Assembly (NCBI GenBank): GCA_017404265.1
Contig: JAFRCS010000004.1
Coordinates: forward strand, 1-64,000
Direction of reading: 5' to 3'
From: Mogibacterium sp.
GTDB lineage: Bacteria > Bacillota > Clostridia > Peptostreptococcales > Anaerovoracaceae
DNA: 64,000 nucleotides
Position numbers and translations under genes: made by a program. Shown here one piece after another: positions 15,238-38,477 of this stretch. The first letter of the stretch is position 1. Each line of letters opens with the position of its first letter. The notes beneath the pieces were generated by a model. The model saw nothing but the letters and a program-made list of their open reading frames with translations, was not told where the DNA came from and searched no databases.

Positions 15238-15270
15238 GGCCTTGGGTCAATACCCAAGGCCTTCCTTTTT
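15238..15270 (+). terminator. Terminator after the sirtuin gene
   Basis: A perfect 10-bp stem (GGCCTTGGGT with ACCCAAGGCC, loop CAAT) is followed by TTCCTTTTT. It closes the metabolic region, and the first copy of the island leader begins directly after it. Confidence 0.9.
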
Positions 15271-15324
15271 GCTTTTTTGAAAGCCCTTGAAACGCAAAGA
15301 CCGTACTGAAAACCTAAAGCAAGA

Positions 15325-15370
15325 TGACGCATAAAAATGACGGTTAAAATGACGCTTCAAAATGTAACAT
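15325..15370 (+). promoter_or_regulatory. TGACG-repeat promoter P1a
   Basis: TGACG occurs at 15325, 15338 and 15350 (pitch 13 then 12). Exactly 10 nt after the last repeat comes TAACAT (15365-15370), a plausible -10. No -35 is present at the normal distance, so activation by a direct-repeat-binding regulator is inferred. Confidence 0.55.
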
Positions 15371-15471
15371 GTATATGGATGAAGGCGCAATTCGTGCATC
15401 TTCAGACGGTTTGTCGTAGCCACTTTCAGAGGCCCCAAAAGCACGAAAAATCCCAAAAGTCTTGAAAATAC

Positions 15472-15504
15472 TGACGGAAGCGATGACGCTTTTGGTGATA
15501 GTAT
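15472..15504 (+). promoter_or_regulatory. TGACG-repeat promoter P1b
   Basis: TGACG at 15472 and 15484 (pitch 12), then 10 nt, then TAGTAT at 15499-15504, which also has a TG one base upstream (extended -10). It lies about 120 nt before sipW. Confidence 0.6.
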
Positions 15505-15625
15505 CTTGACGAAAAGATATGGGTGGGGAAAACTCTGTCAAGTTGCAAGGGAATATTCATAGCGACAGCCGCAATGACGCCTTGAAATAAATGTTATCAA
15601 GGCGGATAATAGAAAGGATAAGACT

Positions 15626-16249
15626 ATGATACGAATTGTAGATATCGCCGGAGCGATAGACATGAGCAGAGTAGAACGCAATACATCGATATATGAGGAG
15701 AATAAAACGAAGCCGTCAGGCGGCGGGATGAAAACCACCGGCCGCATTATGCACGGCGCCGGCATCATTCTTATGTCCATCGTTGTTGCTGCGTGTCTCA
15801 CTCTTGCAATCCCTAAGCTGGTGGGATATGACGGCTATGTAGTTGTCAGCGGAAGCATGGAACCTAACATACCGGTTGGCAGCATAGTCTACTCCGAGAA
15901 GACGGATCCGGCGTTGCTCCGCACGGGAGATGTGATCGTCTTTGTGGACGAGCTGCGCGGCACCACGCCTATAACGCACAGGGTGGTTTCGAACAATCCG
16001 TTTACAGGCACTATCATTACAAAAGGCGATGCCAATGAAAACCAGGATGTAAATCCGGTGACATACGACAGTGTTATTGGCAAGGTAGTCAACCATGTTC
16101 CGCGCATAGGCTTTACTGCAGCCATGTTCACATCAAAACTGGGCAAGCTGATAGCAGCACTGATCCTTCTTGAAGCATGGCTCCTCATGGAGGTCGGAAG
16201 ACGTCTCAAGGGGACAGATAGAGGATCAGAAAAACAAATTGAGTCATAG
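15626..16249 (+). CDS. sipW: Signal peptidase I, SipW (ER-like) type
   Basis: A 207-residue membrane peptidase. There is one hydrophobic helix at about 45-65, the catalytic domain, and a second helix near the C-terminus (about 172-190). The catalytic triad is of the Ser/His/Asp kind found in SipW and eukaryotic SPC: S77 in VSGSMEP, H118 in THRVV and D135 in KGDANE. The Lys of bacterial signal peptidases is absent. SipW enzymes in Bacillus process a few dedicated matrix or surface proteins, not the bulk secretome. AAAGGA lies 8 nt before the ATG. It stands directly upstream of giant surface gene 1 with no terminator between, so its substrates are probably the island proteins. Confidence 0.88.
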   Translation: MIRIVDIAGAIDMSRVERNTSIYEENKTKPSGGGMKTTGRIMHGAGIILMSIVVAACLTLAIPKLVGYDGYVVVSGSMEPNIPVGSIVYSEKTDPALLRTGDVIVFVDELRGTTPITHRVVSNNPFTGTIITKGDANENQDVNPVTYDSVIGKVVNHVPRIGFTAAMFTSKLGKLIAALILLEAWLLMEVGRRLKGTDRGSEKQIES

Positions 16250-16308
16250 TCACATACACAAAACAATTCTGTTAATTAATAGATAATAGCGCTAAAAGGT
16301 TTGAAAAA

Positions 16309-16317
16309 TGGTATAAT
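16309..16317 (+). promoter_or_regulatory. Extended -10 promoter for giant surface gene 1
   Basis: TG-G-TATAAT lies 95 nt before the ATG at 16413. It is a perfect extended -10 without a clear -35. A small hairpin (TAGCG/CGCTA, 16332-16349) lies in the leader. No TGACG repeats occur here, so the TGACG promoters of sipW may also read through into this gene. Confidence 0.6.
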
Positions 16318-16412
16318 TCATTAGATGTGCCTAGCGACAACAGGCGCTATAGCTAACAATTATTAATAACAACAAATAATTTTAAAAATCTTTGTTTTTT
16401 GGGAGGAAAACC

Positions 16413-19400
16413 ATGAAACGCAACAAAACACTTAAGAGATTTCTTGCATTTCTTCTGTGTGCGGCAATGATGATCACCTATATGCCATCGTCAGTATATA
16501 CACTTGCTGACGGGAGCGGTGATGGTGACGAACCGCAAACAAGTGAAGCTACTGTAAGTACAGGATCTTCACAGGGAGAAATAGGAGAAACAAAGGACAC
16601 TGATTCTGCTCCTGCAGGAATAGAGGCTGAATCTGCTTCTACGAATGAGGGAGATGAAGGTGTGTCTGACGTAGACACGGAGGGCCAGATCGTTGAAGGC
16701 GGAACTGAGCCTGACGATGTAAACATTAACGGACCGCCAGAAGGAGATGGACAAGAACCTCTCGAAGAAGGCGTTGAAGAACCGACCAGGGCAACAGATA
16801 CCACCTGGACCGTGACTTTCTACGACAGAGACGCGGAAGTCTACAAAACAGTAGAAGTCACCAAGGGTGAAGCGATCGGCAGCGAGATGCCTGATCCTAT
16901 TGCCCGTGAGGACTATAACGCTTACTGGGCTCTCGGCGAGATCATCGAGGGAACACAGGGCCCGGAGATCAAGGTCACAGGAGACAGGATCACCAGCAGC
17001 TATGTACCGACTGCTGATACTGTTGTAGTTCCTGACTATTCCAAGATCTCCTACACCATCACTTTCTATGAGGATGAAAGTGCTACAACGGCGTTCGCGA
17101 CGAGGACGGTCGACGTCGACACCAGCTATTGCCTGAACGATATCCCGCAGGTACCGGTCAGGAACGGATACTCCGGGAAATGGGTATACAGCGGCGGAGA
17201 CTTCACCAACAGCGTTGCGGCCAGCGGCGATATGAGAGTCTGGGCCGAGTATGAGGCTACAAACTTTACTGTGACCTACAAATACATGCTCGACGGCACA
17301 GAGAAAACATATCAGACTGATGAATACTCCAAGGGAGCTACGATTGAACTTCCAACAGCTCCTGTAGAGGAAGGTCATGAGTTTATCGGCTGGTATTCCG
17401 GAGAGACACAGTACACCGGCGGCGAAGTAGTCAATGGAAATGTAGAACTTCAGGGAAGATTCACTGACATGTACTCCGTAAAGTTCGTCGTGCTGAACGA
17501 TGACGGAACTGTAAAGGAGACACTCTCCCAGTACTTCAGAACTGAGGGCGACAGGATCGAGACTATGCCGCAGGCGCCATTTGTATCCGGCAAGAAGTTC
17601 GTAAAATGGGTCGTCGAAGGCACTGAAACTGAAGTTACAGCGAATACAGTAGTCACCGGAAACTTCAGAGCGGTAGCAGTTTTCGAAGAGGTTGAATCGT
17701 ATACGATCACGGTCGATTACTGGTATAAGACCGACAACGGTTCTCACCATACGTTCGATACTGTAATAACTGAGATCGCTTCCGGCGATTTCAACTCAGA
17801 AGGCAAGTACATCATTACGCCTCCGGCTTCCACACAGACAGATTCAGAACATGTAGAAGATGGTCCTAGGTACTACGCCAGCAGGTCTTCTATTGAAATC
17901 GAGAAATCTCATTTTGATGCAAACCATGCGTACACAACAGATGTAGAGTATGTCGCCTACACAGCGCAGTATGACTTCGTATATCTCCTGAAAGACCTTA
18001 ATGGTAATGGATATACAGAGATCGACCGCGAGTCGAATGTCAAGGGAGTACTTGGTACTTATGTTACTCCGACCGTTAAGGAATTCCCGTACGCTACTCT
18101 TGAGGTTGCTGAAGGAGCAACGATCAATCAGGTATCCGGACAGGAACTTGAGGTCAAGTACGTCAGAAAGAACTATCAGCTCACATATGAGACCAATGGC
18201 GGTTCTTATGTTGGCGGCACGACCGCGCCTTACGGCACAAACGTGACTCTTTCGTCAACGGTTCCGACAAGGGCGGGTTACACATTCGGTGGCTGGTATC
18301 TCGATGAGGCACTCACACAGCCTGCAGGCGCCAGCGTTACGCTGAATGACAATACCACGGTATACGCGAAGTGGAACGGCGCTACCGTTCACTATACGGT
18401 CGTTTATCTGTTCGAGAAGTATAATGACGCCGGCACAAGCAGCAGCTATGTGTACGACAACTCCAGAGACGCAACGGGTACTGTAGGGAGCACAGTACAG
18501 GCAGCCAACGCGCCTAATATAACCAGAACCGGATGGGAGAAAGATACTGAAAAGAACGCAGAATCCAGCGTTGTGATCGCGGCGGACGGATCTTCAGTTC
18601 TGTATGTGTACTATAAACTTACAGAGTATACATTCCATTTCAGACCTGGTACATTCTCCTACAACTATGATGATTATAATGTTACTGCGCCTCTAAACGG
18701 AGAGTCACAAACAGGTAATACCAACTGGTCATATACATTTACTGCGAAGCTCGGTCAGGATATTTCTTCAAAGTGGATCAGTGCAGGAAATGGTAGAGTT
18801 AGAATTTACGGGTCGAATTACAATGTCAACTTCAGCGGCTGGACTGCTGTTGGTGGCGATACAGTATATGTAACAAAACGTCTGACACTTACTGAAGACA
18901 TGCTTCCAAGCAGTGGTACAAGCATTACATATAGCGGTTATTGGCTGTACAGCACTGTCACATATACTGTAAATTACATGCTGCAGAATGCTGATAATGA
19001 CCAGTACACAAAATCTGAGGCTTATAGCCAGACATATAATTATTCTTCCGGCGCATCCCTTAGCCCGAAGGATATCCCTGGCTACACTTATGTCCGCAGA
19101 ACTGACAGCGGTAATACGACAACTTTCTATTATGACCGTGACACGTTCAAGATCGACTACTACTACGGCAGCACAAAGCTGAATACGATCGAAAACATCA
19201 AGTTTGACGCGACGATCACCGGCAGCACATATAACTGGACGCCGACTGCCGCGCAGTGCGGTGTGGACAGCGACTATACGTTCGCGGGTTGGTATTCTGA
19301 CTCAGGTCTGACTACTCCGTATACGTTCAGCACAATGCCGGCATCGAACCTTGTACTGTACGCTAAGTGGACCGCTCCTTCATATACAGTCAGCTTTGTT

Positions 19401-22400
19401 GATACTGACGGCACGACTCAGCTTGCGGACAGCCAGACTGTAGAGAAGTACAAGAAAGTTGAGAAGCCTGCGAACCCGACAAAGGTCGGATACACATTCG
19501 ATGGCTGGTACACAGCTGCCGAAGGCGGTCAGATGTATGACTGGAACAACCAGATCACAGCTGATACTACTATCTACGCGCACTGGACGCAGGAGCCGCT
19601 GAGCTATACTGTTCACTATGTAAAGGGTTCCGAAACCGGTGAGGAAGTAGCCCCGGTCAAGACTGTCAGCAATCCGAACTGGACAGTAGGCGAAGTGATC
19701 ACTGAAAAGGCGCTCGCCATAGCCGGATACCGCCCTGACGCAGGTGAAAAGAGCGTTACGCTCAGCATTGGATCGACCAATGATATCTACTTCATATATA
19801 ACGTAAAGAGCGAAACAACAGGTTATACAGTAAGGTATCTGGAAGAAGGAACAAATGAACCGGTACATGACCCGAAAGTAGTTGAAAACGTTCCTGGCGA
19901 CACAGCCTCTGTTGTTGAGTTCGCTGTTGAAATCGATGGTCTTTATCCTAACGTTGAGGAAATAACCTATACGCTTGGATCAGACCCGGCAAACAACATT
20001 ATCACCTTCTATTATTCAAAATATAAGAGCATAAATGTCACGGTCAATTTCGTTGACATGGCAGGACAGCCTATTGCTGATCCGGACACAAAGACGCTGA
20101 AGGTAGGAAATACATTTACCCTGAGCCGTACACCTATCGCGGGATGGGATCTCAATAAGGCGGTCAAGGGCACGGCATTCAGTGGAGATGCTGCTGAAGA
20201 TTCCTTAAAGATCACAGAAGCGGTCATTGAGGCTAACCCGGATGGTCTTGTGTACACGCTCTTCTATCAGAAGAGACTGACGATCACCGCGAACAGCTTC
20301 TCGAAGCAGTATGACGGAACCGCGCTCATGATGCCTACAACTCTGGCTGATCAGGTAACGGTCGAAGGTCTGGCAGATGGAGACTCGCTTACCGGCATCT
20401 CGTTCGGATATACGGGCGCTGACAATCCTACTCAGAACGGAAGGATCAACGCAGGTACAGCGACCGTTACACCTGTTGCTCCGCAGATCAGCGGCGTACA
20501 TAATACAAATTATTATAAGATACGCGTTTTAAGCGGATCATTAGAAGTAACAAAGATCAACGTCACCATCCGTATCGAGCCTGACCGCTGGACCGGAGCG
20601 GAATACAACGGTGAGGTATACAAGGCCGGATTTACCAATCCTGGCAAGGAGATTTCAGATTACGTAATCATCAGCCACGAAGGTTACCGCAATCAATACC
20701 TGACTGCCGTATGGAATGCTGTAAAGGCAAAGGCGCAACACGATTCATCTGCTGCCGGTCTGGGATACTACGGGCTCGCTGAGAGCGATGTCGGAGATTA
20801 CACATGGAATCTGGAGCTGACGACAGCTGATCTGCCTCAGAACGACAACTACAGCGTAAGCCTGTATGTCCGTCCGGGAAGACTGCAGATCCTGCCTAAG
20901 GCGATCACAGTAAAGGCAAATGGCGGCAGCAAGCCGTATGATGGTACGCCGATCACGGCAGAAGGAACAGGCTACACCATCACATCAGGCTCTCTCGCTG
21001 ACGGAGATGCAATAAATGTACCGCTCTCCGGATCTCAGACTGATCTCGGAAGCTCCCCTGCAACCGTGGGAGCTGTCACGATCACAAGAGGAGAAGGCGA
21101 TGACGCTAAAAATGTAACAGACAACTATACTATTGTTAAAGAAGACGGAACTCTGACAGTTACACCGGTCACGACCGAGTACGTGATCACGGTAACCGGA
21201 AATAACGCAAGCTATCAGTACAATGGTTCTGAGCAGAGCGTAAACGGCTACACAGTAAGCGATTACGATCCTAAGATCACGTTCACGGGCATCGATCAGG
21301 ACGACGCTAAGGCGACCGCTAAGGGAACCAACGCCGGCACATACACGATGACGATGTCTGAGGCTGACTTCAGCGCGACATCAGAGTACTACACGAACAT
21401 CAAGATCGTGGTAGTACCTGGAAAACTGACGATCACAAAGAAGACAGAACCTTATAAGATCACGGTAACCGGTAATTCGACAACAAAGATCTACAACGGT
21501 TCTGAGCAGAGTGTAAGCGGCTACACGGTGAGCGAACACGATCCTTCGATCACGGTAACAGGTCCGGCGCAGGATAGCGCTAAGGCGACTGCAAAGGGAA
21601 CCAACGCAGGCACATACACGATGACGCTGTCTGAATCCGACTTTACAGCGACATCAGCCAACTACGATAACATCCAGATCGAGGTAGTACCTGGAACACT
21701 GGAGATCACACCGATCACCGATGAGTATGAGATCACGGTAACAGGTAACTCTGATACAAAGGTCTATAACACTGAGGAGCAGAGCGTAAACGGCTACACA
21801 GTAAGCACATACGATTCGACGATCAACTTCTCAGGCATCGCGCAGAACGACGCTAAGGCGACCGCAAAGGGAACCAACGCAGGCACCTACACGATGGCGA
21901 TGACCAAGGATGACTTCAGCGCTACATCGAACAACTACACTAATATCAAGATCACTGTAGTACCTGGAACGCTGACGATCACACCGATCGAAGAAGAGTA
22001 TGAGATCACAGTGACCGGACACTCTGATACAAAGGTCTACAACAGAGCCGAGCAGAGCGTAAGCGGTTACGATGTAAGCGACTACGACTCGACGATCACA
22101 CTTAACGGTCCGGCACAGGATAGCGCTAAGGCGACCGCAAAGGGAACCAACGTCGGCACTTACACGATGACGATGGCTGATGCTGACTTCACAGCGACAT
22201 CGGTCAACTACACCAACATCAAGGTAACTGTAGTTCCTGGAACACTGGAGATCACACCGATCACCGATGAGTACGAGATCACAGTAACCGGAAACTCTGA
22301 CACTAAGGTCTACAACGGATCTGAGCAGAGTGTAAGCGGCTACACAGTCAGCAGCTTCGATTCGACGATCACGTTCAACGGCATCGCGCAGGATGACGCG

Positions 22401-25400
22401 AAGGCGACCGCAAAGGGAACCAACGCGGGCACCTACAACATGACGATGTCAGCAGCTGACTTCACGGCTACATCGGACAACTACAGCAACATCAAAATCA
22501 CAGTAGTTCCTGGAACACTGACGATCACACCTGTCACAACCGAGTACGAGATCACAGTAACCGGTAACTCTGATACCAAGGTCTATAACACTGAGGAGCA
22601 GAGCGTAAACGGCTACACAACAAGTGAATACGATCCGACGATCACGTTCAACGGCATCGATCAGGATGACGCTAAGGCGACCGCAAAGGGAACCAACGCA
22701 GGCACATACACGATGACGATGACCAAGGATGACTTCAGCGCTTCATCGGTCAACTACACTAACATCAAGATCACTGTAGTACCTGGAACACTGACGATCA
22801 CACCGATCACATCCGAGTACGAGATCACAGTAACCGGAAACTCCGCGACAAAGATCTACAACGCATCTGAGCAGAGCGTAAACGGCTACACAGTAAGCGA
22901 GTTCGATCCGACGATCACGTTCACGGGCATCGATCAGGACGACGCGAAGGCTACCGCAAAGGGAACCAACGTCGGCACCTACACGATGACGATGACGCAG
23001 AGCGACTTCAACGCTTCGTCGGTCAACTACACAAACATCAAGATCACAGTAGTACCTGGAACGCTGACGATCAGCAAGAAGACAGATGAGTACGTGATCA
23101 CAGTAACCGGTAACTCCGCGACACAGATCTACAAGGGTTCTGAGTGGAGCGTAAGCGGTTACACAACAAGTCAATACGATTCGTCGATCACTCTTAACGG
23201 TCCGGCACAGGACGACGCTAAGGTTACCGCAAAGGGAACCAACGCCGGCACCTACACGATGACGATGTCTGAGGCTGACTTCACAGCGACATCAGCCAAC
23301 TACGACAACATCAGGATCGTGGTAGTACCTGGAACGCTTACGATCACACCGATCGAAGATGAGTATGTGATCACAGTAACCGGAAACTCCGACTCGAAGG
23401 TCTATAACGGATCCGAGCAGAGCGTAAACGGCTACACAGTAAGCACATACGACTCGTCGATCACGTTCGAGGGTCTTGAGCAGAACGACGCTAAGGCTAC
23501 CGCAAAGGGAACCAATGTCGGCACCTACACGATGACGATGACCAAGGATGACTTCAGTGCATCATCGGTCAACTACACCAACATCAAGATCACAGTAGTA
23601 CCTGGAACGCTGACGATCACACCGGTCACCGATGAGTACGAGATCACAGTAACCGGAAACTCCGACTCGAAGGTCTACAACGGATCCGAGCAGAGCGTAA
23701 ACGGATACACGGTAAGCGAATACGACTCGACGATCAACTTCACAGGCATCGATCAGGATGACGCTAAGGCGACCGCAAAGGGAACCAACGCCGGCACCTA
23801 CACGATGACGATGGCAGCATCTGACTTCAGCGCTACATCGGTCAACTACAGCAACATCAAGATCACTGTAGTACCTGGAACGCTGACGATCACACCGATC
23901 ACTGATGAGTATGAGATCACAGTAACCGGTAACTCCGCGACAAGAACCTACAACGGATCTGAGCAGAGCGTAAGCGGCTACACAGTAAGCGAGTACGATT
24001 CCACGATCAACTTCACAGGCATCGCACAGGACGACGCGAAGGCGACCGCAAAGGGAACCAACGCCGGCAACTATACGATGACGATGACCAAGGATGACTT
24101 CAGCGCTACATCGGTCAACTACACCAACATCAAGATCACAGTAGCACCTGGAACGCTGACGATCACAAAGGATACAGAACCATACGTGATCACAGTAACC
24201 GGAAACTCCGACTCGAAGGTCTATAACAGAGCCGAGCAGAGTGTAAGCGGCTACACGGTCAGCGACTACGATTCGTCGATCACGTTCACAGGCATCGCGC
24301 AGGACGACGCCAAGGCGACCGCTAAGGGAACCAACGTTGGCACCTACACGATGACGATGACATCTGCTGACTTCAGCGCTACATCGAACAACTACGAGTC
24401 GATCACGATCAACGTAGTACCTGGAACGCTTGAGATCACACCGGTAACGACCGAGTACGTGATCACAGTAACCGGAAATAACGCAAGCTATCAGTACAAT
24501 GGATCTGAGCAGAGCGTAAACGGCTACACAGTAAGCGATTACGATCCGACGATCACGTTCACAGGCATCGCGCAGAACGACGCTAAGGCGACCGCAAAGG
24601 GAACCAACGCGGGCGAGTACACGATGACGATGGCAGCAGCTGACTTCACAGCTACATCGGACAACTACAGCAACATCAAGATCAACGTAGTACCTGGAAA
24701 ACTGACGATCACAAAGAAGACAGAGCCTTATGTGATCACAGTTACAGGAAACTCCGGCACGCAGATCTACAACGGATCTGAGCAGAGCGTAAGCGGCTAC
24801 ACGGTGAGCGAGCATGATCCTTCGATCACGTTCACAGGCATCGCGCAGAACGACGCTAAGGCGACCGCAAAGGGAACCAACGCGGGCACCTACACGATGA
24901 CGATGACATCGTCAGACTTCAGCGCGACTTCTGAGAACTATGAGTCGATCACGATCAATGTAGTACCTGGAACGCTGACGATCACCCCGATCACTGATGA
25001 GTATGAGATCACAGTAACCGGACACTCCGACTCGAAGGTCTACAACGGATCTGAGCAGAGCGTAAGCGGATACGACGTGAGCGAATACGACTCGACGATC
25101 ACGCTCAACGGTCCGGCGCAGAACGACGCTAAGGCGACCGCAAAGGGAACCAACGCCGGCACATACAATATGACGATGACCAAGGATGACTTCACAGCGA
25201 CATCGGTCAACTACACGAACATCAAGGTAACTGTAGTACCTGGAACGCTGACGATCACCCCGATCACGGATGAGTATGTGATCACAGTAACCGGAAACTC
25301 CGACTCGAAGGTCTACAACGGATCTGAGCAGAGCGTAAACGGCTACACAGTAAGCGAATACGATTCGACGATCAACTTCACAGGCATCGGTCAGGACGAC

Positions 25401-27077
25401 GCCAAGGCGACCGCAAAGGGAACCAACGCGGGCACCTACACGATGACGATGACCAAGGATGACTTCAGCGCGACATCGGTCAACTACACGAACATCAAGA
25501 TCAATGTTGAACCTGGAACGCTGACGATCACACCGATCACCGATGAGTATGAGATCACAGTAACCGGAAACTCCGACTCGAAGGTCTACAACGGATCTGA
25601 GCAGAGCGTAAGCGGCTACACAGTAAGCGAATACGATTCGACGATCACACTTAACGGTCCGGCACAGAACGACGCCAAGGCGACAGCTAAGGGAACCAAC
25701 GCGGGCACCTACACAATGCCGATGACTAATGTTGACTTTACAGCGACATCGGTCAACTACACCAACATCAAGGTAACAGTAGAGCCTGGAACGCTGACGA
25801 TCACACCGGCTAAGCTGCCGGACGATCCGGATGATCCGGACGATCCTGCGAACAAGAGATTCGATGTATCGCAGCCTAAGGATGTTCCTTACAACGGACA
25901 GGATCAGAAGCAGCCTGTTACAATAACAGACACTACATCCGGTAAAGAGCTTACAAGCGCTGATGTCACTGTTGAATACAGCAATGATGTCAAGAACGTC
26001 GGAACAGTTACAGTAACTATTACCGCAGTTGAAAACGGCAACTACACCGGAAGCTTCACAAGGACCTACAAGATTACACCGGCGCCTATAACAATCAAGG
26101 CGGACGATAAGAGTAAGGTCTATGGACAGGCCGATCCTGAACTCACAGTATCGATAGTATCCGGACAGCTCTACGGCGAAGATGAGATCAAATACGATAT
26201 CTCAAGAGAAGCCGGAGAAAATGTTGGCAAGTACACTATCGAGCTCAAGGATGGCACAAACTTCATTCTGAAGGCCCTCAAGCTGACAAAGGGCAACTAT
26301 GACATAACCTTCGAGAATGGAACGTTCACTATCACAAAGGCTCCGCTGACAATTACAACTCCAAGTGCTACAAGAGCTTACAACGGTAATCCGCTTACAG
26401 CTACAGGAGCTACTATCAGCGGTCTGGTGAATGGAGATAAGGCAACGGTTACAGCTACAGGCTCTCGTACAGCAGTAGGGTCCAGCCAGAATACATATTC
26501 GATCAACTGGACTTCAGGTTCTGCGTCCAACTACGACATTAAGGAGAACCTTGGTATTCTGACAGTCACAGCAGCAGGAGGTCCTGGCCCTGGCCCTGGC
26601 CCTGGTCCTGGCCCTGGAGTTACTCCAGCAGCTCCGACCGTAGTACCTGATGAGCCGGCACCGGCAGCTGAGCCTGAGACAGTCATCCCTGATGAGCCGA
26701 CACCTATGGCTGAAGGCACATGGGCTCTGATCAACTTGATCTCGGCAATCGTCACAGCACTCGGCGCAGTCATCGCACTCTTCCGCAAGAAAGAGGATGA
26801 AGATGAGGACGAGGACAACATGTACAAGGAAGAGGATGAAGACGACAACAGGGGCAAGAAAATGCTCGCTGCTAAGATCGCCGGAGCACTCGCAGGAGTT
26901 GCTGCACCGATCACATTCTTCCTTACCGAGGACATGAGCCTGCCGATGGCTATGATCGATAAGTGGACAGTCCTGATGCTGGTTATGCTGGCAGTTCAGG
27001 TTGTCGCAGCGGTCTTCAACAAGAAGGCATCGGAACTCGATGACGACGAGGAGACAGCTGAGGAAGCAGCTAACTAA
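16413..27077 (+). CDS. Giant MBG/InlB-repeat surface protein 1 (3554 residues)
   Basis: A secreted, membrane-anchored adhesin-like protein. The start is ATG 16413 with GGGAGG in front; an in-frame TTG at 16392 is less likely. The signal peptide ends near ADG (about residue 35) and carries the YMPS motif shared with proteins 2 and 3. An acidic linker follows, then a domain beginning WTVTFYDRDAEVYK (about 130) shared with protein 4. Next come InlB-like beta-grasp repeats with GYTFGGWY...YAKW (about 280-1100), a MucBP-like segment (about 1138-1190) and MBG-type domains (about 1290-1580). Residues 1585-3131 are 17 exact 91-residue repeats. Then follow an MBG_2-like domain, a Gly-Pro linker (about 3389) and a three-helix anchor (about 3435-3545) with a DE-rich cytoplasmic loop. 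There is no LPXTG. A likely role is binding host or bacterial glycans or mucins; the ligand is unknown. Confidence 0.85.
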   Translation: MKRNKTLKRFLAFLLCAAMMITYMPSSVYTLADGSGDGDEPQTSEATVSTGSSQGEIGETKDTDSAPAGIEAESASTNEGDEGVSDVDTEGQIVEGGTEPDDVNINGPPEGDGQEPLEEGVEEPTRATDTTWTVTFYDRDAEVYKTVEVTKGEAIGSEMPDPIAREDYNAYWALGEIIEGTQGPEIKVTGDRITSSYVPTADTVVVPDYSKISYTITFYEDESATTAFATRTVDVDTSYCLNDIPQVPVRNGYSGKWVYSGGDFTNSVAASGDMRVWAEYEATNFTVTYKYMLDGTEKTYQTDEYSKGATIELPTAPVEEGHEFIGWYSGETQYTGGEVVNGNVELQGRFTDMYSVKFVVLNDDGTVKETLSQYFRTEGDRIETMPQAPFVSGKKFVKWVVEGTETEVTANTVVTGNFRAVAVFEEVESYTITVDYWYKTDNGSHHTFDTVITEIASGDFNSEGKYIITPPASTQTDSEHVEDGPRYYASRSSIEIEKSHFDANHAYTTDVEYVAYTAQYDFVYLLKDLNGNGYTEIDRESNVKGVLGTYVTPTVKEFPYATLEVAEGATINQVSGQELEVKYVRKNYQLTYETNGGSYVGGTTAPYGTNVTLSSTVPTRAGYTFGGWYLDEALTQPAGASVTLNDNTTVYAKWNGATVHYTVVYLFEKYNDAGTSSSYVYDNSRDATGTVGSTVQAANAPNITRTGWEKDTEKNAESSVVIAADGSSVLYVYYKLTEYTFHFRPGTFSYNYDDYNVTAPLNGESQTGNTNWSYTFTAKLGQDISSKWISAGNGRVRIYGSNYNVNFSGWTAVGGDTVYVTKRLTLTEDMLPSSGTSITYSGYWLYSTVTYTVNYMLQNADNDQYTKSEAYSQTYNYSSGASLSPKDIPGYTYVRRTDSGNTTTFYYDRDTFKIDYYYGSTKLNTIENIKFDATITGSTYNWTPTAAQCGVDSDYTFAGWYSDSGLTTPYTFSTMPASNLVLYAKWTAPSYTVSFVDTDGTTQLADSQTVEKYKKVEKPANPTKVGYTFDGWYTAAEGGQMYDWNNQITADTTIYAHWTQEPLSYTVHYVKGSETGEEVAPVKTVSNPNWTVGEVITEKALAIAGYRPDAGEKSVTLSIGSTNDIYFIYNVKSETTGYTVRYLEEGTNEPVHDPKVVENVPGDTASVVEFAVEIDGLYPNVEEITYTLGSDPANNIITFYYSKYKSINVTVNFVDMAGQPIADPDTKTLKVGNTFTLSRTPIAGWDLNKAVKGTAFSGDAAEDSLKITEAVIEANPDGLVYTLFYQKRLTITANSFSKQYDGTALMMPTTLADQVTVEGLADGDSLTGISFGYTGADNPTQNGRINAGTATVTPVAPQISGVHNTNYYKIRVLSGSLEVTKINVTIRIEPDRWTGAEYNGEVYKAGFTNPGKEISDYVIISHEGYRNQYLTAVWNAVKAKAQHDSSAAGLGYYGLAESDVGDYTWNLELTTADLPQNDNYSVSLYVRPGRLQILPKAITVKANGGSKPYDGTPITAEGTGYTITSGSLADGDAINVPLSGSQTDLGSSPATVGAVTITRGEGDDAKNVTDNYTIVKEDGTLTVTPVTTEYVITVTGNNASYQYNGSEQSVNGYTVSDYDPKITFTGIDQDDAKATAKGTNAGTYTMTMSEADFSATSEYYTNIKIVVVPGKLTITKKTEPYKITVTGNSTTKIYNGSEQSVSGYTVSEHDPSITVTGPAQDSAKATAKGTNAGTYTMTLSESDFTATSANYDNIQIEVVPGTLEITPITDEYEITVTGNSDTKVYNTEEQSVNGYTVSTYDSTINFSGIAQNDAKATAKGTNAGTYTMAMTKDDFSATSNNYTNIKITVVPGTLTITPIEEEYEITVTGHSDTKVYNRAEQSVSGYDVSDYDSTITLNGPAQDSAKATAKGTNVGTYTMTMADADFTATSVNYTNIKVTVVPGTLEITPITDEYEITVTGNSDTKVYNGSEQSVSGYTVSSFDSTITFNGIAQDDAKATAKGTNAGTYNMTMSAADFTATSDNYSNIKITVVPGTLTITPVTTEYEITVTGNSDTKVYNTEEQSVNGYTTSEYDPTITFNGIDQDDAKATAKGTNAGTYTMTMTKDDFSASSVNYTNIKITVVPGTLTITPITSEYEITVTGNSATKIYNASEQSVNGYTVSEFDPTITFTGIDQDDAKATAKGTNVGTYTMTMTQSDFNASSVNYTNIKITVVPGTLTISKKTDEYVITVTGNSATQIYKGSEWSVSGYTTSQYDSSITLNGPAQDDAKVTAKGTNAGTYTMTMSEADFTATSANYDNIRIVVVPGTLTITPIEDEYVITVTGNSDSKVYNGSEQSVNGYTVSTYDSSITFEGLEQNDAKATAKGTNVGTYTMTMTKDDFSASSVNYTNIKITVVPGTLTITPVTDEYEITVTGNSDSKVYNGSEQSVNGYTVSEYDSTINFTGIDQDDAKATAKGTNAGTYTMTMAASDFSATSVNYSNIKITVVPGTLTITPITDEYEITVTGNSATRTYNGSEQSVSGYTVSEYDSTINFTGIAQDDAKATAKGTNAGNYTMTMTKDDFSATSVNYTNIKITVAPGTLTITKDTEPYVITVTGNSDSKVYNRAEQSVSGYTVSDYDSSITFTGIAQDDAKATAKGTNVGTYTMTMTSADFSATSNNYESITINVVPGTLEITPVTTEYVITVTGNNASYQYNGSEQSVNGYTVSDYDPTITFTGIAQNDAKATAKGTNAGEYTMTMAAADFTATSDNYSNIKINVVPGKLTITKKTEPYVITVTGNSGTQIYNGSEQSVSGYTVSEHDPSITFTGIAQNDAKATAKGTNAGTYTMTMTSSDFSATSENYESITINVVPGTLTITPITDEYEITVTGHSDSKVYNGSEQSVSGYDVSEYDSTITLNGPAQNDAKATAKGTNAGTYNMTMTKDDFTATSVNYTNIKVTVVPGTLTITPITDEYVITVTGNSDSKVYNGSEQSVNGYTVSEYDSTINFTGIGQDDAKATAKGTNAGTYTMTMTKDDFSATSVNYTNIKINVEPGTLTITPITDEYEITVTGNSDSKVYNGSEQSVSGYTVSEYDSTITLNGPAQNDAKATAKGTNAGTYTMPMTNVDFTATSVNYTNIKVTVEPGTLTITPAKLPDDPDDPDDPANKRFDVSQPKDVPYNGQDQKQPVTITDTTSGKELTSADVTVEYSNDVKNVGTVTVTITAVENGNYTGSFTRTYKITPAPITIKADDKSKVYGQADPELTVSIVSGQLYGEDEIKYDISREAGENVGKYTIELKDGTNFILKALKLTKGNYDITFENGTFTITKAPLTITTPSATRAYNGNPLTATGATISGLVNGDKATVTATGSRTAVGSSQNTYSINWTSGSASNYDIKENLGILTVTAAGGPGPGPGPGPGPGVTPAAPTVVPDEPAPAAEPETVIPDEPTPMAEGTWALINLISAIVTALGAVIALFRKKEDEDEDEDNMYKEEDEDDNRGKKMLAAKIAGALAGVAAPITFFLTEDMSLPMAMIDKWTVLMLVMLAVQVVAAVFNKKASELDDDEETAEEAAN
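21165..25805 (+). repeat. 17 tandem 273-nt (91-aa) repeats in giant gene 1
   Basis: Units begin with P-x-x-x-E-Y-x-I-T-V-T-G and contain VYNGSEQSV(N/S)GY, DAKATAKGTNAGTYTM and VVPGTLTIT. Seventeen units fill 4641 nt exactly (17 x 273), so there is no net insertion or deletion. Unit 13 begins at 24441, as predicted by the period. Variation is concentrated in the GIxQxD/GPAQxS loop and in the segment after KVYN. The fold is MBG-like (YNG/YDG motif). Confidence 0.95.
26583..26617 (+). repeat. Hexanucleotide repeat encoding a Gly-Pro linker
   Basis: Tandem CCTGGC/CCTGGT units encode an alternating Gly-Pro stretch between the last MBG domain and the membrane anchor. Slippage here would change linker length in steps of two residues. 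Confidence 0.85.
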
Positions 27078-27117
27078 AAACGGATAAGCGTTAATCGCTG
27101 AACCAAACCAAACAATA

Positions 27118-27150
27118 CGGGAGATAGCCTAAATGGCTATCTCCCGTTTT
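27118..27150 (+). terminator. Terminator of giant gene 1
   Basis: A perfect 12-bp stem (CGGGAGATAGCC with GGCTATCTCCCG, loop TAAAT) is followed by TTTT. The stem resembles those after genes 3 and 4 (GAGACAGC). Confidence 0.85.
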
Positions 27151-27190
27151 ATTAGTTGTGCGAAAACGATATTATTATAGTAGAAAACTA

Positions 27191-27219
27191 AGAGGCGACT
27201 GAAAGGCTGCCTCTTTTTT
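27191..27219 (+). terminator. Second terminator-like hairpin at the start of leader copy 2
   Basis: AGAGGC pairs with GCCTCT and is followed by TTTTTT and GCTTTTTGAAAA. All three leader copies begin with a hairpin and T-tract of this kind, which would insulate each surface gene from its upstream neighbour. Confidence 0.65.
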
Positions 27220-27494
27220 GCTTTTTGAAAAATCGTTGAAACAGCTTGTTCACGACCTTCAATAAAAGCAAGATGACGCTTATAAATGACGGTTAAAATG
27301 ACGCTTCGATAATTAATATGTATATGGATGAAGGCGCAAAGTATGCGGTTTCGACAGCATTAGTGCGCTCAGCACCACTGACAGAGGGGTGGTCATAACA
27401 GCCAACCCGTTGGAAACACTGGGTTTGAGAAAACAGTGGCAATAGGATCATCTGGGCCGGAAAACCGTGTCCGAAGGATCTGTCAAGTTGCAAG
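27212..27494 (+). repeat. Island leader copy 2 (upstream of surface gene 2)
   Basis: This occupies most of the 515-nt gap between genes 1 and 2. The TGACG triplet with its flanks and the following GTATATGGATGAAGGCGCAA are almost identical to copy 1. The middle part diverges, and the end TCTGTCAAGTTGCAAG matches copy 1 again. It encodes no protein that I can support. Confidence 0.7.
27274..27319 (+). promoter_or_regulatory. TGACG-repeat promoter P2a
   Basis: TGACG at 27274, 27287 and 27299 (pitch 13 then 12), then 10 nt, then TAATAT at 27314-27319. Confidence 0.55.
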
Positions 27495-27507
27495 CCTGAT
27501 AACAAAA

Positions 27508-27540
27508 TGACGATCAAAATGACGGTTAAAACCGTAAACT
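27508..27540 (+). promoter_or_regulatory. TGACG-repeat promoter P2b
   Basis: TGACG at 27508 and 27520 (pitch 12), then 10 nt, then TAAACT at 27535-27540. It lies about 50 nt before the ATG of gene 2 and so predicts a short ordinary leader. Confidence 0.5.
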
Positions 27541-27592
27541 AAAACTGTAAGAAAAAGCGAGATAAATAATAAAAGTTGGAAGGAGAAATAAA

Positions 27593-29725: not shown

Positions 29726-29746
29726 GAATAGGGCACAGTAACACTC

Positions 29747-29776
29747 AGTGAGGCGGCTGAAAAGCCGCCTCACTTT
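29747..29776 (+). terminator. Terminator of surface gene 2
   Basis: A perfect 12-bp stem (AGTGAGGCGGCT with AGCCGCCTCACT) closed by a GAAA tetraloop, followed by TTTTGCTTTTTG. Confidence 0.9.
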
Positions 29777-29832
29777 TGCTTTTTGATAAACATGCTGGAA
29801 ACCCTGGGTTTTGACATTAAGTCAAAGCACAA

Positions 29833-29878
29833 TGACGCTTTAATATGACGGATAAAATGACGCCATGTAATGTAATGT
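29833..29878 (+). promoter_or_regulatory. TGACG-repeat promoter P3a
   Basis: TGACG at 29833, 29846 and 29858 (pitch 13 then 12), then 10 nt, then TAATGT at 29873-29878. It has the weakest -10 match of the triplet sites. Confidence 0.45.
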
Positions 29879-29980
29879 GTATATGTGAGAAGAGGCGGAG
29901 CCATTGGCTTCAGCAGGTTTGTCATACACATTTTTAAAACGTTGAAAAAGCTCAAAAAAACCAAAAAGCCTTGAAAATAC

Positions 29981-30013
29981 TGACGGAACTAATGACGCTT
30001 TTGGTGATAGTAT
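29981..30013 (+). promoter_or_regulatory. TGACG-repeat promoter P3b
   Basis: TGACG at 29981 and 29993 (pitch 12), then 10 nt, then TAGTAT at 30008-30013 with TG upstream. It is nearly identical to P1b. Confidence 0.6.
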
Positions 30014-30166
30014 TTGGTAAATTAAAGGAGTATGGGAAAGACTTTGTCAAGTCACCGGACCAACACATTGTTGACGAACAAAATGACGCTTTCTACACAA
30101 AACTCATACATTATTGAAGAAAATAAAGAAATATTAAGAAAAGGCGAGCATTTTGTGTAGGTTGTG

Positions 30167-30175
30167 TGATAGAAT
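30167..30175 (+). promoter_or_regulatory. Extended -10 promoter near surface gene 3
   Basis: TG-A-TAGAAT lies about 100 nt before the ATG at 30274. Confidence 0.45.
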
Positions 30176-30273
30176 TTTATACCAAGTAAAATTGCACTAT
30201 TGCAGTTAACAATGCTAACTTTTTAACTCAATATAACAATAATTTACTATATCAAGTGAAGGAGAAGGGCAAT

Positions 30274-35817: not shown

Positions 35818-35853
35818 AACATGTAAGGCATAACGCCTGACTAAAACAAAAAG

Positions 35854-35884
35854 ACAAGAGACAGCGTAATTCGCTGTCTCTTGT
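35854..35884 (+). terminator. Terminator of surface gene 3
   Basis: A perfect 13-bp stem (ACAAGAGACAGCG with CGCTGTCTCTTGT, loop TAATT) is followed by a weak T-tract, TTCGTT. Confidence 0.75.
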
Positions 35885-35933
35885 TTCGTTAAAAAACATT
35901 TTAAAAAGGGCCGTAATCGACTAATATATATAT

Positions 35934-36476
35934 ATGAGTAAAAAAGGCGACAGAAGGGTTTTAGGCCGGTTTGACGGGCTCAAGCTTGGCTGGCTGCGTG
36001 ACTCGCTGTTTTTCGTTGCGGCGATCGTGGCGTGCATTATCGTATTCAGATTCGTGATAGGGTTTTCCGTGGTAAGCGGAGCCTCGATGGATCCGACTCT
36101 GAAGGACGGGGATTTTGTCGTATATTACAGAATGACACATACCTACAAGGAAGGAGACATTGTCTCCATGAGGGTCCCGTCAGGCGACTTCTATATCAAA
36201 AGGGTCATGGCGACCGGAGGCAGCAGCGTGGACATATATGACGGAAAGGTCTTTGTGGACGGCACGGAGATTGCTGATGAACACGCCAATGGAATCACGG
36301 AAGAGGAGACAGGTGCTGTCATATATCCGTACAAGGTACGCGACGGCAACGTGTTCGTACTTGGCGACAACAGGATGGTCTCGAAGGACTCTAGGATGTT
36401 CGGCGAGGTCAATCTGCGGCAGATAAAAGGCAAGGTAGTGCTTAAGATTAACAGAGACGGGATCACGAGGTTCTGA
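35934..36476 (+). CDS. lepB: Signal peptidase I, bacterial (Ser/Lys) type
   Basis: A 180-residue membrane peptidase with one N-terminal helix (about 24-45). The Ser/Lys dyad is visible: S51 in SGASMDPTL and K89 in YIKRVMATGG. Box E appears as VLGDNRMVSKDSRMFG. It differs from the SipW-type enzyme of this island in catalytic chemistry. It is compact, as in Gram-positive paralogs. No Shine-Dalgarno sequence is visible before ATG 35934. A TAATAT (35922-35927) lies so close to the ATG that a leaderless transcript is possible. It starts a tight operon with the GGDEF-like and sigma genes (gaps of 3 and 2 nt). Confidence 0.9.
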   Translation: MSKKGDRRVLGRFDGLKLGWLRDSLFFVAAIVACIIVFRFVIGFSVVSGASMDPTLKDGDFVVYYRMTHTYKEGDIVSMRVPSGDFYIKRVMATGGSSVDIYDGKVFVDGTEIADEHANGITEEETGAVIYPYKVRDGNVFVLGDNRMVSKDSRMFGEVNLRQIKGKVVLKINRDGITRF

Positions 36477-36479
36477 GAC

Positions 36480-37175
36480 ATGAAAAAATTTGACAGAATA
36501 AAGACGATACAGCTCCTGCTGCTCATAGCGATCACGGCGGCCTCGCTCGTGGTCATACTGCGTAACAGCGAGCTCTATGCGCTCATAGCGACAAATATGG
36601 CGGCCAGGACCATCAGCGTTCTGCTGTGGCTGACGCTCGGGCTGTCGTTCCTTTTCCTGCTCTATGACTTCAGTTCATACGCGGACATGAGGCGCGAGAA
36701 CAGCGAGCTGGACAACGCGGTCTATTCGGATGCGCTGACAGGCATAGCAAACAGATACAGCGTGGACGCGTATATCGGGCAGTTTCACGGAAGACCGCTG
36801 CCTGAGGATATGGGTGTCGTGACGATAGATATGACGAACCTCAGCGAGATAAACAAGGCTCATGGCCACAGCGGAGGCGATATGGCCATACAGGAATTCG
36901 CGTCCATACTTCAGACTGCCGCGGGCAGAGCCTGCTTCATCGGAAGAAATGGAGGCAATAAGTTTGTGGCCATATTCAGGGATTGCACAGAGACGCGTCT
37001 GGAGAGGTTCCTCGATTCGGTGGAATCTCTGACTGATGAGAGAAACGCATTGCATGAAGACGCGCGTATCAGATACAGCGCCGGTACGGCATTCAATGAA
37101 GGTGAAGATATAAAAACAGTAACAGAACTCGTTGCACTTTCGGATAAAAGGGCAAGACAGGCAAACAGTAAGTAG
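36480..37175 (+). CDS. Membrane GGDEF-domain protein with degenerate active site
   Basis: A 231-residue protein. Two hydrophobic helices (about 10-27 and 39-62) are followed by a GGDEF-fold domain: DALTGIANR at about 83-91, NKAHGHSGGD near 125, and the signature site. The signature reads GGNKF (158-162), so the catalytic Asp/Glu and the next Glu are replaced by Asn-Lys. Diguanylate cyclase activity is therefore unlikely. It may bind GTP or a partner, or be a structural relic. Its short membrane hairpin has no extracellular sensor domain. It lies between lepB and the membrane sigma gene in one operon, which suggests a signalling role with one of them. Confidence 0.78.
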   Translation: MKKFDRIKTIQLLLLIAITAASLVVILRNSELYALIATNMAARTISVLLWLTLGLSFLFLLYDFSSYADMRRENSELDNAVYSDALTGIANRYSVDAYIGQFHGRPLPEDMGVVTIDMTNLSEINKAHGHSGGDMAIQEFASILQTAAGRACFIGRNGGNKFVAIFRDCTETRLERFLDSVESLTDERNALHEDARIRYSAGTAFNEGEDIKTVTELVALSDKRARQANSK

Positions 37176-37177
37176 GG

Positions 37178-38410
37178 ATGAAAAAAGCGGGACGCACATT
37201 CGACAGGCTTGACCAGTCCTACCTCAACGGACTGGTGACAAGGGCAAAGCAGGGCAACAGCAATGCTTTTGCCGAGCTTTTCGCGTCCGTTGCCGACCGT
37301 CAGCTCTGCTATCTGACGCACCTGTTCGGAAGCAGGGAGGAAGCGATAGAGGTCCTGCCTGAGGTGTTCACGGCAGTTCACAGGTCACTCCCGTCACTTG
37401 CCAAGGCGGATCTTTTCATGCCGTGGATATGCCGTATCTCGGCTCTGAAATACATGGGAAAGGCCGGGATGAGGTCTGTCGGAAATTCGGACTACACACT
37501 GTCGCAGATACTGAATCTGCCTCTCGCGGAATCACAGATCATGCTGATGAGCCTTGAACAGGGACTGTCGGACAGCGAAATAGCAGAACTCATGAACGTC
37601 GGCAGGCGCACCATCACGAGATTCGTAAGGATGGGAAGACGGCATCTCGCGAAGCATGCGGCGGGAAGCGCAGCAAAAACTGCCCGCAGGGCTTCTTCCC
37701 GAAAGAGCAGGCTGGCAGCATCGTTCTCTGAACTCACGACTCTTGAGACTTCAGAGATACTCGACCACGTCTTCAGCACCTGCGGAAGCGACGCAAACAC
37801 GGTCCCTATGGATACCATTTCTTCATATGCTGTATACAGGAAGGAAAGGTTCACGCTGCAGAGAGTCATCATCGCTATGGCGCTGCTTGTGTTCATGATG
37901 CTCCCGCTTATGTTCGTGCTGCCGGGCTATACGGTAAAGGTGGATGAAGCAGGCGAGCGCGGGCTTCCGGTGTATACCGTCGAAGTCGATTCTATCCTGC
38001 CTGTGGGCAAGGTGCTGGCCACAATTAAGGAGCACAGCCTGCCTGTATACGAAGCAGGGGCTAAAGAGTTTACCGTTGAGCCGACGCGTAACGGCAGCCT
38101 GGATATCTGCGTAGAGCTGATCAATCATCAGAGAGTGAGCAACAGCTATGACGTAACTGCCGTGGACTCTGAGGGACCGCAACTCCTGGAGAGCAAGACT
38201 CTCAATGACGGTTTCCTTCTTAAGGTATCTGATGCCGGCATCGGGGTGGACTACAGAGATATATATGCTGTATCGGCTTCCGGTAAGACGTACCATCCTG
38301 TAAGTGCCGGTGAAGACGGTGTGCTCTTTGAATACCCGAAGGAATCATGGGACATATATATACCCGATCATATCGGGAACACGCTTCATTTAGCGGTAAA
38401 AATCAACTAA
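37178..38410 (+). CDS. Membrane-tethered ECF-like sigma factor with extracytoplasmic domain
   Basis: A 410-residue protein. Residues about 12-80 fit sigma region 2 (YLNGLVTRAKQGNSNAFAELF; EEAIEVLPEVFTAV). Residues about 108-155 fit region 4, with a helix-turn-helix (LSDSEIAELMNVGRRTITRFVRMGRRHL). A basic linker follows, then one transmembrane helix at about 229-250 (VIIAMALLVFMMLPLMFVL). About 160 extracytoplasmic residues remain, of which the last 85 look like an Ig-like beta domain (VDSEGPQLLESK...). Topology places the sigma part in the cytosol. No anti-sigma gene is adjacent. Release by proteolysis or signalling across the membrane is inferred. It starts 2 nt after the GGDEF gene stop. 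Confidence 0.75.
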   Translation: MKKAGRTFDRLDQSYLNGLVTRAKQGNSNAFAELFASVADRQLCYLTHLFGSREEAIEVLPEVFTAVHRSLPSLAKADLFMPWICRISALKYMGKAGMRSVGNSDYTLSQILNLPLAESQIMLMSLEQGLSDSEIAELMNVGRRTITRFVRMGRRHLAKHAAGSAAKTARRASSRKSRLAASFSELTTLETSEILDHVFSTCGSDANTVPMDTISSYAVYRKERFTLQRVIIAMALLVFMMLPLMFVLPGYTVKVDEAGERGLPVYTVEVDSILPVGKVLATIKEHSLPVYEAGAKEFTVEPTRNGSLDICVELINHQRVSNSYDVTAVDSEGPQLLESKTLNDGFLLKVSDAGIGVDYRDIYAVSASGKTYHPVSAGEDGVLFEYPKESWDIYIPDHIGNTLHLAVKIN

Positions 38411-38444
38411 AAAGCCCTTATTTCAAGCCATTCGCCGCTTTGAT

Positions 38445-38477
38445 TGACGGCAATAATGACGCTTTTTCATTTATAAT
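38445..38477 (+). promoter_or_regulatory. TGACG-repeat promoter P4
   Basis: TGACG at 38445 and 38457 (pitch 12), then 10 nt, then a perfect TATAAT at 38472-38477. It lies 43 nt before ATG 38521. This is the clearest member of the promoter class and, apart from the TGACG doublet, is unrelated in sequence to the three leader copies. Confidence 0.7.

What the first reader, a model, noticed from the sequence alone, without database searches (positions are those of the whole stretch)
15325..38477. A shared promoter architecture: TGACG direct repeats plus a -10 at fixed distance before the surface-gene units
Seven sites follow one rule: TGACG repeats at 12-nt pitch (with an extra upstream repeat at 13 nt in three sites), then exactly 10 nt, then a hexamer of the form TANNNT. 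The -10 hexamers begin at 15365, 15499, 27314, 27535, 29873, 30008 and 38472. The one at 38472 is a perfect TATAAT. No -35 is present at 16-18 nt, and the last repeat takes its place. This geometry resembles activator-dependent promoters such as the Pho box, with a different pitch. All sites precede island units (sipW, surface genes 2 and 3, and the small-protein/giant-4 operon). In the other intergenic regions I checked I found only a single TGACG (near 53215), never a doublet. Some sites are homologous copies, so they are not seven independent cases; 27535 and 38472 are the most independent.
Basis: partly seen in the sequence, partly recalled or inferred. Interest (0 to 1): 0.87.

Follow-up and report, generated by a model that had tools for sequence, protein, structure and literature searches.

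The report
Shared start switch for surface genes
In this gut bacterium and many of its close relatives, genes for very large surface proteins share one DNA layout in front of them, TGACG words repeated every 12 letters and then a predicted RNA polymerase start signal, on which a not yet identified activator protein (possibly of the AraC type) would likely sit to switch them on together.

Summary
All seven sites are at the stated coordinates. The full pattern TGACG-N7-TGACG-N10-TANNNT occurs 8 times in the 1.83-Mb genome (reversed control 0): these seven, and one on another contig, 43 nt before a secreted LRR surface protein. So 8 of 8 precede sipW or surface-gene units. The layout is lineage-wide: 34 exact sites in 15 of 35 congeners, 0 in 24 genomes of other genera. 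Of 27 such sites inspected, 15 precede surface proteins and 5 a lysine-riboswitch transporter.

Relatives show what the window hides: 22 of 25 sites carry an inverted half-site (NGTCA) 20-21 nt upstream, 11 of 25 another at 41-42, and 18 of 25 an extended -10. No site has a -35. The seven are not independent: three leaders descend from one with three tandem elements.

My reading is an activator-dependent promoter class in which a protein on the repeats replaces the -35. The geometry is nearest to SARP/"sigma adaptation" boxes; it is not a Pho box. LuxR/NarL and LytTR regulators are absent from the genome. Its single AraC-type regulator has orthologs in 19 of 19 motif-bearing genomes but also in 16 of 27 others, so it is only the leading candidate. 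Binding and transcription starts are untested.

The parts
15325..15370 (+). P1 element of the sipW leader: TGACG at 15325, 15338, 15350; -10-like TAACAT at 15365
   Evidence: sequence; model hit 39.6 bits
15472..15504 (+). P2 element of the sipW leader: TGACG at 15472, 15484; extended -10 TGATAGTAT with hexamer at 15499
   Evidence: 35.9 bits; conserved island in two other species
15575..15579 (+). Single TGACG aligned with the P3 doublets of the other two leaders, read as a relic of P3
   Evidence: alignment A2; relic is inference
15626..16249 (+). sipW-like signal peptidase I
   Evidence: Pfam Peptidase_S26; NCBIfam TIGR02228 above cut-off, SipW model NF046067 below cut-off
16413..27077 (+). 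Giant surface gene 1, downstream of sipW; no TGACG doublet in its own short intergenic stretch
   Evidence: domains not scanned (one search failed)
27274..27319 (+). P1 element of the gene 2 leader: TGACG at 27274, 27287, 27299; -10-like TAATAT at 27314
   Evidence: 38.8 bits
27420..27448 (+). Stretch aligned with P2 of the other leaders that lacks both TGACG words (decayed P2, inference)
   Evidence: alignment A2
27508..27540 (+). P3 element of the gene 2 leader: TGACG at 27508, 27520; -10-like TAAACT at 27535
   Evidence: 31.5 bits
27593..29725 (+). Surface gene 2 (710 aa) with C-terminal FILTED domain
   Evidence: NCBIfam NF052597 104 bits, cut-off 40
29833..29878 (+). P1 element of the gene 3 leader: TGACG at 29833, 29846, 29858; -10-like TAATGT at 29873
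   Evidence: 24.0 bits
29981..30013 (+). P2 element of the gene 3 leader: TGACG at 29981, 29993; extended -10 with hexamer TAGTAT at 30008
   Evidence: (32.3 bits)
30072..30104 (+).
   Evidence: 13.8 bits
30274..35817 (+). Surface gene 3 (1847 aa) with Listeria-Bacteroides repeats and C-terminal FILTED domain
   Evidence: NCBIfam
35934..38410 (+). Three genes: signal peptidase (35934-36476), GGDEF protein (36480-37175), sigma-factor-like membrane fusion P0001 (37178-38410); upstream neighbours of the 38472 site
   Evidence: Pfam; same order in L045, L046 and L158
38445..38477 (+). Site before the small-protein/giant-4 unit: TGACG at 38445, 38457; perfect TATAAT at 38472
   Evidence: 33.4 bits; positional counterparts in G023 and G070
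38521..51203 (+). Small secreted/membrane protein (38521-38916) and giant gene 4 (38913-51203, 4096 aa, Flg_new, MBG_2, YDG and MucBP repeats)

Best explanation
The TGACG arrays mark a lineage-specific promoter class for the surface programme, in which a dedicated activator is predicted to bind the 12-nt repeats in place of the missing -35 and so bring ordinary (likely sigma-A) RNA polymerase to the TANNNT -10. Counting the first T of the hexamer as -12 (assumed), the half-sites fall at -39..-35 and -27..-23, so a bound protein would cover the -35 and the spacer and could offer sigma region 4 another docking point, as 'sigma adaptation' activators do. In relatives, inverted half-sites at about -60 and -81 would hold further copies; the seven window sites lack them, and three of these have a third direct repeat instead. 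The leading candidate for the activator, from distribution and family only, is the single AraC-type regulator of this genome (L207:3459-4190). Shown: pattern, exclusivity in this genome, spread in the genus, conservation, lack of a -35, lack of LuxR/NarL and LytTR regulators. Inferred: that these are promoters, that the protein activates, and which protein it is.
For: Exact pattern 8 times genome-wide, 8 of 8 before sipW/surface units, reversed control 0. Of 23 doublets TGACG-N7-TGACG in the genome (reversed control 7), 10 lie between genes before these units, and 8 of the 10 have TANNNT at exactly N10 although the search did not ask for it; the other 13 fall in open frames (frames not curated). 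34 exact sites in 15 of 35 congeners (reversed control 9), 0 in 24 genomes of 19 other genera (control 3). Bases not demanded by the pattern are conserved in relatives: NGTCA at -20/-21 in 22 of 25, at -41/-42 in 11 of 25, TGn before the -10 in 18 of 25. No -35 in 33 of 33 sites, best match 3 of 6. Sites are conserved islands between species. GerE and LytTR: 0 in this genome. AraC: 1 in this genome; orthologs in 19 of 19 motif-bearing genomes; best NCBIfam match is the YSIRK-targeted surface antigen regulator TIGR04094, 100.9 bits, below its cut-off of 200.
Against: No start site, binding or expression data. The AraC ortholog is also in 16 of 27 genomes without a strong motif hit; Fisher 0.0012, ignoring kinship, and weaker than my first count of 14 of 27 (2e-4). 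Its DNA-binding region is conserved in those genomes too. In this genome only 1 of 8 sites has the inverted half-site and 2 of 8 the extended -10. Two doublets (30072, C8:80652) have no -10 at N10. I did not test SARP, WYL, XRE, MarR, CRP or RemA families.
Confidence: 0.6

Rival explanations
1. Same promoter class, but the activator is a winged-helix protein (OmpR/PhoB-type response regulator or SARP-like) bound head to tail on the identical half-sites.
For: Identical half-sites in direct repeat with an AT-rich linker suit two copies of one winged helix, and the SARP box has nearly this position. The genome has 3 OmpR-type regulators.
Against: Pitch is 12, not 11. The C16 regulator is core (37 of 47 congeners, with or without the motif) and was not found in 2 of 19 motif-bearing draft genomes. 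The other two were not profiled.
Confidence: 0.3
2. The repeats are operators of a repressor that covers an otherwise active promoter with an extended -10.
For: 18 of 25 relatives' sites have an extended -10, which can work without a -35 (general knowledge).
Against: The distance to the -10 is fixed, a -35 is never present (33 of 33 sites), and only 2 of 8 own-genome sites have the extended -10.
Confidence: 0.15
3. The sigma-factor-like fusion protein P0001, encoded just upstream of the 38472 site, reads these promoters.
For: It carries a sigma region 4 and is followed by a site in 3 of 3 genomes where the fused form was found.
Against: No match over most of its length was seen in most motif-bearing congeners (G070 found only), and the -10 is of the housekeeping type.
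Confidence: 0.05
4. The repeats have no regulatory role and are shared only because the leaders are copies of one another.
For: Three window leaders are homologous copies.
Against: The same layout precedes unlike genes in unlike leaders, and the half-sites and -10 are conserved islands between species.
Confidence: 0.03

Closest known systems
SARP boxes, e.g. AfsR afs box of Streptomyces (PMC10936776, passages read)
   Same: Direct repeats in place of a -35, 3' repeat at a fixed short distance from the -10, box centred near -29.
   Different: SARP repeats are 11 or 22 bp apart with 8 bp to the -10; here 12 and 10. Other half-site, other phylum; a SARP protein was not searched for in this genome.
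PafBC 'sigma adaptation' (described in PMC10936776, passages; PMC11804915, start of abstract in the listing)
   Same: An activator sits between -26 and sigma region 4 and replaces a poor -35.
   Different: One -26 element for a WYL-family heterodimer against a repeated TGACG array; no WYL protein was searched for here.
Pho box of PhoB (PMC4415409, passages read)
   Same: Tandem direct repeats of a GTCA-like core.
   Different: Pho repeats are 11 nt with CTGTCAT; here pitch 12 and, next to the -10, the opposite orientation (TGACG on the coding strand).
AraC-type activators of surface antigens: Spy1337 of Streptococcus pyogenes (PMC7098570, passages read), EbrB of Enterococcus faecium (PMC3669262, start of abstract in the listing)
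   Same: An AraC-type gene linked to large surface proteins; the genome's only AraC protein has its best NCBIfam match in this family.
   Different: There the regulator gene is next to its target; here it is on another contig, beside DNA polymerase IV, and below the family cut-off.
RemA of Bacillus subtilis (PMC8481266, passages read)
   Same: Activates biofilm matrix genes from AT-rich direct repeats.
   Different: RemA repeats are poorly conserved, 7 bp with 3-bp gaps, and far upstream of the promoter; here well conserved, 12 nt and beside the -10. RemA was not searched for in this genome.

Membership tests
Pho box / PhoB regulon | two 11-nt direct repeats with a CTGTCAT-like core | tested here: not met
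   pitch 12 in 8 of 8 intergenic doublets of the window; half-site TGACG
SARP promoters | repeats 11 or 22 bp apart, last repeat 8 bp from the -10 | tested here: not met
   pitch 12 and 10 nt in 8 of 8 exact sites
SARP promoters | a SARP (OmpR-like plus BTA domain) protein in the genome | not tested
Sigma-adaptation activators | no usable -35, activator site between -35 and -10 | tested here: met
   0 of 33 sites with 4 or more of 6 matches to TTGACA; half-sites at fixed places in the spacer region
Sigma-adaptation activators | protein bound there contacts sigma region 4 | not testable with these tools
   needs binding and structure data
Sigma-A promoters with extended -10 | TGn before TANNNT | tested here: inconclusive
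   18 of 25 sites in relatives, 2 of 8 here
LuxR/NarL (DegU-type) regulation | a GerE-domain regulator in the genome | tested here: not met
   0 in G000; none in 16 of the 21 genus genomes searched
LytTR regulation | a LytTR-domain regulator in the genome | tested here: not met
   0 in G000, though 42 of 46 genomes searched have one
AraC-type surface-antigen regulator (TIGR04094) | score above the family cut-off | tested here: not met
   100.9 bits against 200
AraC-type surface-antigen regulator (TIGR04094) | AraC DNA-binding domain | tested here: met
   Pfam HTH_AraC and HTH_18 above cut-off
AraC-type surface-antigen regulator (TIGR04094) | binds and activates the surface-gene promoters | not testable with these tools
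   only co-occurrence was tested: 19 of 19 against 16 of 27

The most novel reading that the evidence does not exclude
A sigma-adaptation-type promoter system in Clostridia: one lineage of ruminant-gut bacteria runs its giant surface-protein programme (sipW-type peptidases, FILTED-domain and repeat-rich giants, a lysine transporter) from a mixed direct and inverted TGACG array that replaces the -35, read by a core AraC-type regulator recruited to this job.
Probability: 0.25. Interest if true: 0.72.

Novelty: new variant of a known kind. Interest (0 to 1): 0.57.

Why it matters
It gives a sequence key that predicts, in uncultured gut Clostridia, which genes belong to the surface programme and where their transcription would start. 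It also offers a testable case of an activator that replaces the -35 outside the actinobacteria. I found no description of such a promoter class: searches that required TGACG together with direct repeat(s) and response regulator or sigma factor, or with tandem, response regulator and Firmicutes, and Anaerovoracaceae with promoter and surface protein, returned 0 papers (open-licence PMC papers only, all terms required).

Tried and rejected
DegU-like regulator: first suggested by TAAATGAC-like half-sites (recalled DegU motif); rejected, no GerE family member in the genome. LytTR regulator: none in the genome. C16 OmpR-type regulator: core gene, uninformative. RNA elements: no Rfam family reaches its gathering score in the window; a lysine riboswitch was found only at the transporter sites of relatives. 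Upstream regions of sipW in congeners: in several, sipW follows the sir2-like gene directly and shows no such promoter, so they gave no alternative motif.

Counts not used as evidence: (50 non-coding doublets at pitch 12 against 5 at nine other pitches from 8 to 17; TANNNT at N10 in 42 of 50), because most of those loci were fetched with this very pattern. Rows dropped: model R1 was built from 35 of 39 compiled sites, leaving out L022, two L023 sites and window 29846; one search left out the likely chance sites L024 and L026 (33 of 35 kept). Motif-bearing (19) means E below 1e-4; that call used stricter filters and a model trained partly on the same genomes.
Full report
WHAT WAS CHECKED. The seven sites are exactly as described. 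The repeats are not a chance product: the window has 3,611 intergenic bases by my gene list, holding 21 forward TGACG and 1 reverse; 8 pairs lie at pitch 12 and 3 at pitch 13; 2,000 dinucleotide shuffles give 0.0015 doublets per shuffle and no full pattern, against 8 and 7 observed. In the whole genome (1,827,285 bases, 20 contigs, 97.7% complete) the full pattern has 8 exact hits and the reversed control 0. With one mismatch allowed there are 17 hits against 4 in the control; of the 9 extra ones I recognise only window 30072 as intergenic before a surface gene. The doublet alone has 23 hits against 7 in the control: 10 lie between genes before these units, and 8 of those 10 have TANNNT at exactly N10; the other 13 fall in open frames, which I did not curate. 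The eighth exact site, C8:80715, is on another contig. It ends 43 nt before the start codon of a 1,225-aa secreted protein with LRR_5 and Listeria-Bacteroides repeats; a second doublet without a -10 lies 63 nt upstream of it.

INDEPENDENCE. The leaders of sipW, gene 2 and gene 3 align over their length. The simplest reading (inference) is one ancestral leader with three tandem elements: P1 with three repeats, P2 with an extended -10, and P3. The sipW leader has kept P1 and P2 and one half-site of P3; the gene 2 leader has kept P1 and P3, with the half-sites of P2 gone; the gene 3 leader has kept P1 and P2, and its P3 lacks the TANNNT. So the window holds three copies of one leader plus the separate 38472 site.

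THE LINEAGE. In 35 congeners the exact pattern occurs 34 times in 15 genomes (reversed control 9), and 0 times in 24 genomes of 19 other genera of the order (control 3). A sequence model of about 52 bits finds hits below E = 1e-4 in 19 of 47 genus genomes, this one included; the model was trained partly on the same genomes, and the call used stricter filters that lose weak matches. In 84,980 named species genomes the pattern GTCA-N15/16-TGACG-N6-ATGACG-N10-TANNNT gives 38 stretches. By title I assign 24 of them to one group (Mogibacterium sp. and Clostridiales MAGs); several match G-handle sites in coordinates or contig length, which is how I place the genus. The other 14 are single stretches scattered over other taxa, near the roughly 15 expected by chance (my estimate, even base composition), and by eye most look coding. 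Titles of the group name sheep and goat gut sections. Mogibacterium belongs to Anaerovoracaceae, Clostridia.

HIDDEN CONSERVATION. Among 35 exact sites collected without any demand on the flanks (8 own, 27 of the 34 in relatives), NGTCA stands at -20/-21 from the first TGACG in 23 and at -41/-42 in 11. Leaving out two likely chance sites, the split is 22 of 25 in relatives and 1 of 8 here for -20/-21, and 11 of 25 and 0 of 8 for -41/-42; TGn precedes the -10 in 18 of 25 and 2 of 8; the best match to TTGACA at 16-18 nt is at most 3 of 6 in all 33. 12 of 25 relatives' sites, and 0 of 8 here, also have an nTAnn(T/C/A)AC word just after the -10, not explained. The window sites are thus a variant of the lineage's layout. 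Counterpart sites in other species are islands of identity in diverged flanks: P2 in G003 and G066, and the 38472 site in G070 and G023, where the gene upstream is 62% identical in G023.

TARGETS. Of the 34 relatives' sites, 27 had loci: 15 precede surface proteins judged by eye (3 of these short or fragmentary), 5 an NhaC-superfamily transporter, 1 a sipW gene, 1 a GGDEF-like gene (by eye), 3 have no frame of 70 aa in reach or run off the contig, 2 look like chance. 5 of 5 transporter leaders carry a lysine riboswitch, so lysine is the likely cargo. Twenty stretches taken around mostly weaker model hits repeat the picture: in 17 of 20 the site precedes a signal peptidase, surface or other secreted protein gene, in L146 it lies in an open frame, in L151 the contig ends, in L156 my threshold found none.

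THE REGULATOR. I tested families rather than guess. GerE (LuxR/NarL): 0 in this genome. LytTR: 0 here, though 42 of 46 genomes searched have one. OmpR type: 3 here; the one on C16 is core, in 37 of 47 genus genomes with or without the motif, and was not found in 2 of 19 motif-bearing drafts. AraC: exactly 1 here. I fetched 43 AraC loci of the genus. The same gene, beside DNA polymerase IV in 34 of 35 cases, is in 19 of 19 motif-bearing genomes (67-100% identity) and in 16 of 27 others. Fisher's test gives 0.0012 and ignores kinship. Its best NCBIfam match is the YSIRK-targeted surface antigen regulator family, at half the cut-off. AraC proteins are the typical direct-repeat binders among helix-turn-helix regulators (PMC9723621, abstract), and in Streptococcus pyogenes one is proposed to activate a large surface antigen (PMC7098570, passages). 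This makes it the leading candidate, not a result. Its DNA-binding region is conserved in congeners without the motif too, which would mean that gain of sites, not of the regulator, built the regulon.

MECHANISM. With the hexamer's first T at -12 (assumed), the two TGACG words cover -39..-35 and -27..-23, where sigma region 4 would otherwise meet a -35. The AfsR box of Streptomyces (22 bp, centred at -29.5, 3' repeat 8 bp from the -10 in this class) is the nearest described geometry; there the activator gives region 4 another docking point (PMC10936776, passages). I propose the same kind of action here; it is inferred. A repressor is less likely, because the distance to the -10 is fixed and there is no -35, but it is not excluded.

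STANDING. Shown: pattern, exclusivity in this genome, lineage restriction, target classes, further conserved half-sites, conservation islands, absence of two regulator families. Inferred: promoter function, activation, sigma-A, AraC identity. Not tested: transcription starts, binding, the remaining regulator families.

Noticed in passing
window 37178-38410; also L046:1486-2709 and L158:1802-3046: A sigma-factor-like protein (region 4 by Pfam) fused to a membrane-spanning stretch and an outer domain. In G005, G011 and G031 the counterpart is split into an ordinary ECF-type sigma factor and a separate membrane protein.
   Followed up: partly
L073, L083, L088, L101, L104: The TGACG promoter lies upstream of a lysine riboswitch and an NhaC-superfamily transporter in 5 of 5 loci.
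   Followed up: partly
sites in L018, L019, L020, L027, L029, L030, L031, L033, L036, L038, L041, L042: An nTAnn(T/C/A)AC word directly after the -10, often followed by AGAAA, in 12 of 25 relatives' sites and 0 of 8 own sites.
   Followed up: no
G000:C8:80652 (L253), 63 nt before C8:80715: A second TGACG doublet without a -10 upstream of the LRR-protein promoter, possibly an extra activator site.
   Followed up: no
window 27593-29725 and 30274-35817: Surface proteins 2 and 3 end in a FILTED domain, above the family cut-off.
   Followed up: no
L231, L232, L240, L248, L249; window 14449-16249: In several congeners sipW directly follows the sir2-like gene without the TGACG leader, so the leader looks inserted between the two genes here (by sequence likeness).
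   Followed up: partly
L144:2998-5480 and L049: In G002 a doublet precedes a transglutaminase and GspF-like operon; in G005 similar genes follow the GGDEF, sigma factor and membrane protein genes.
   Followed up: no
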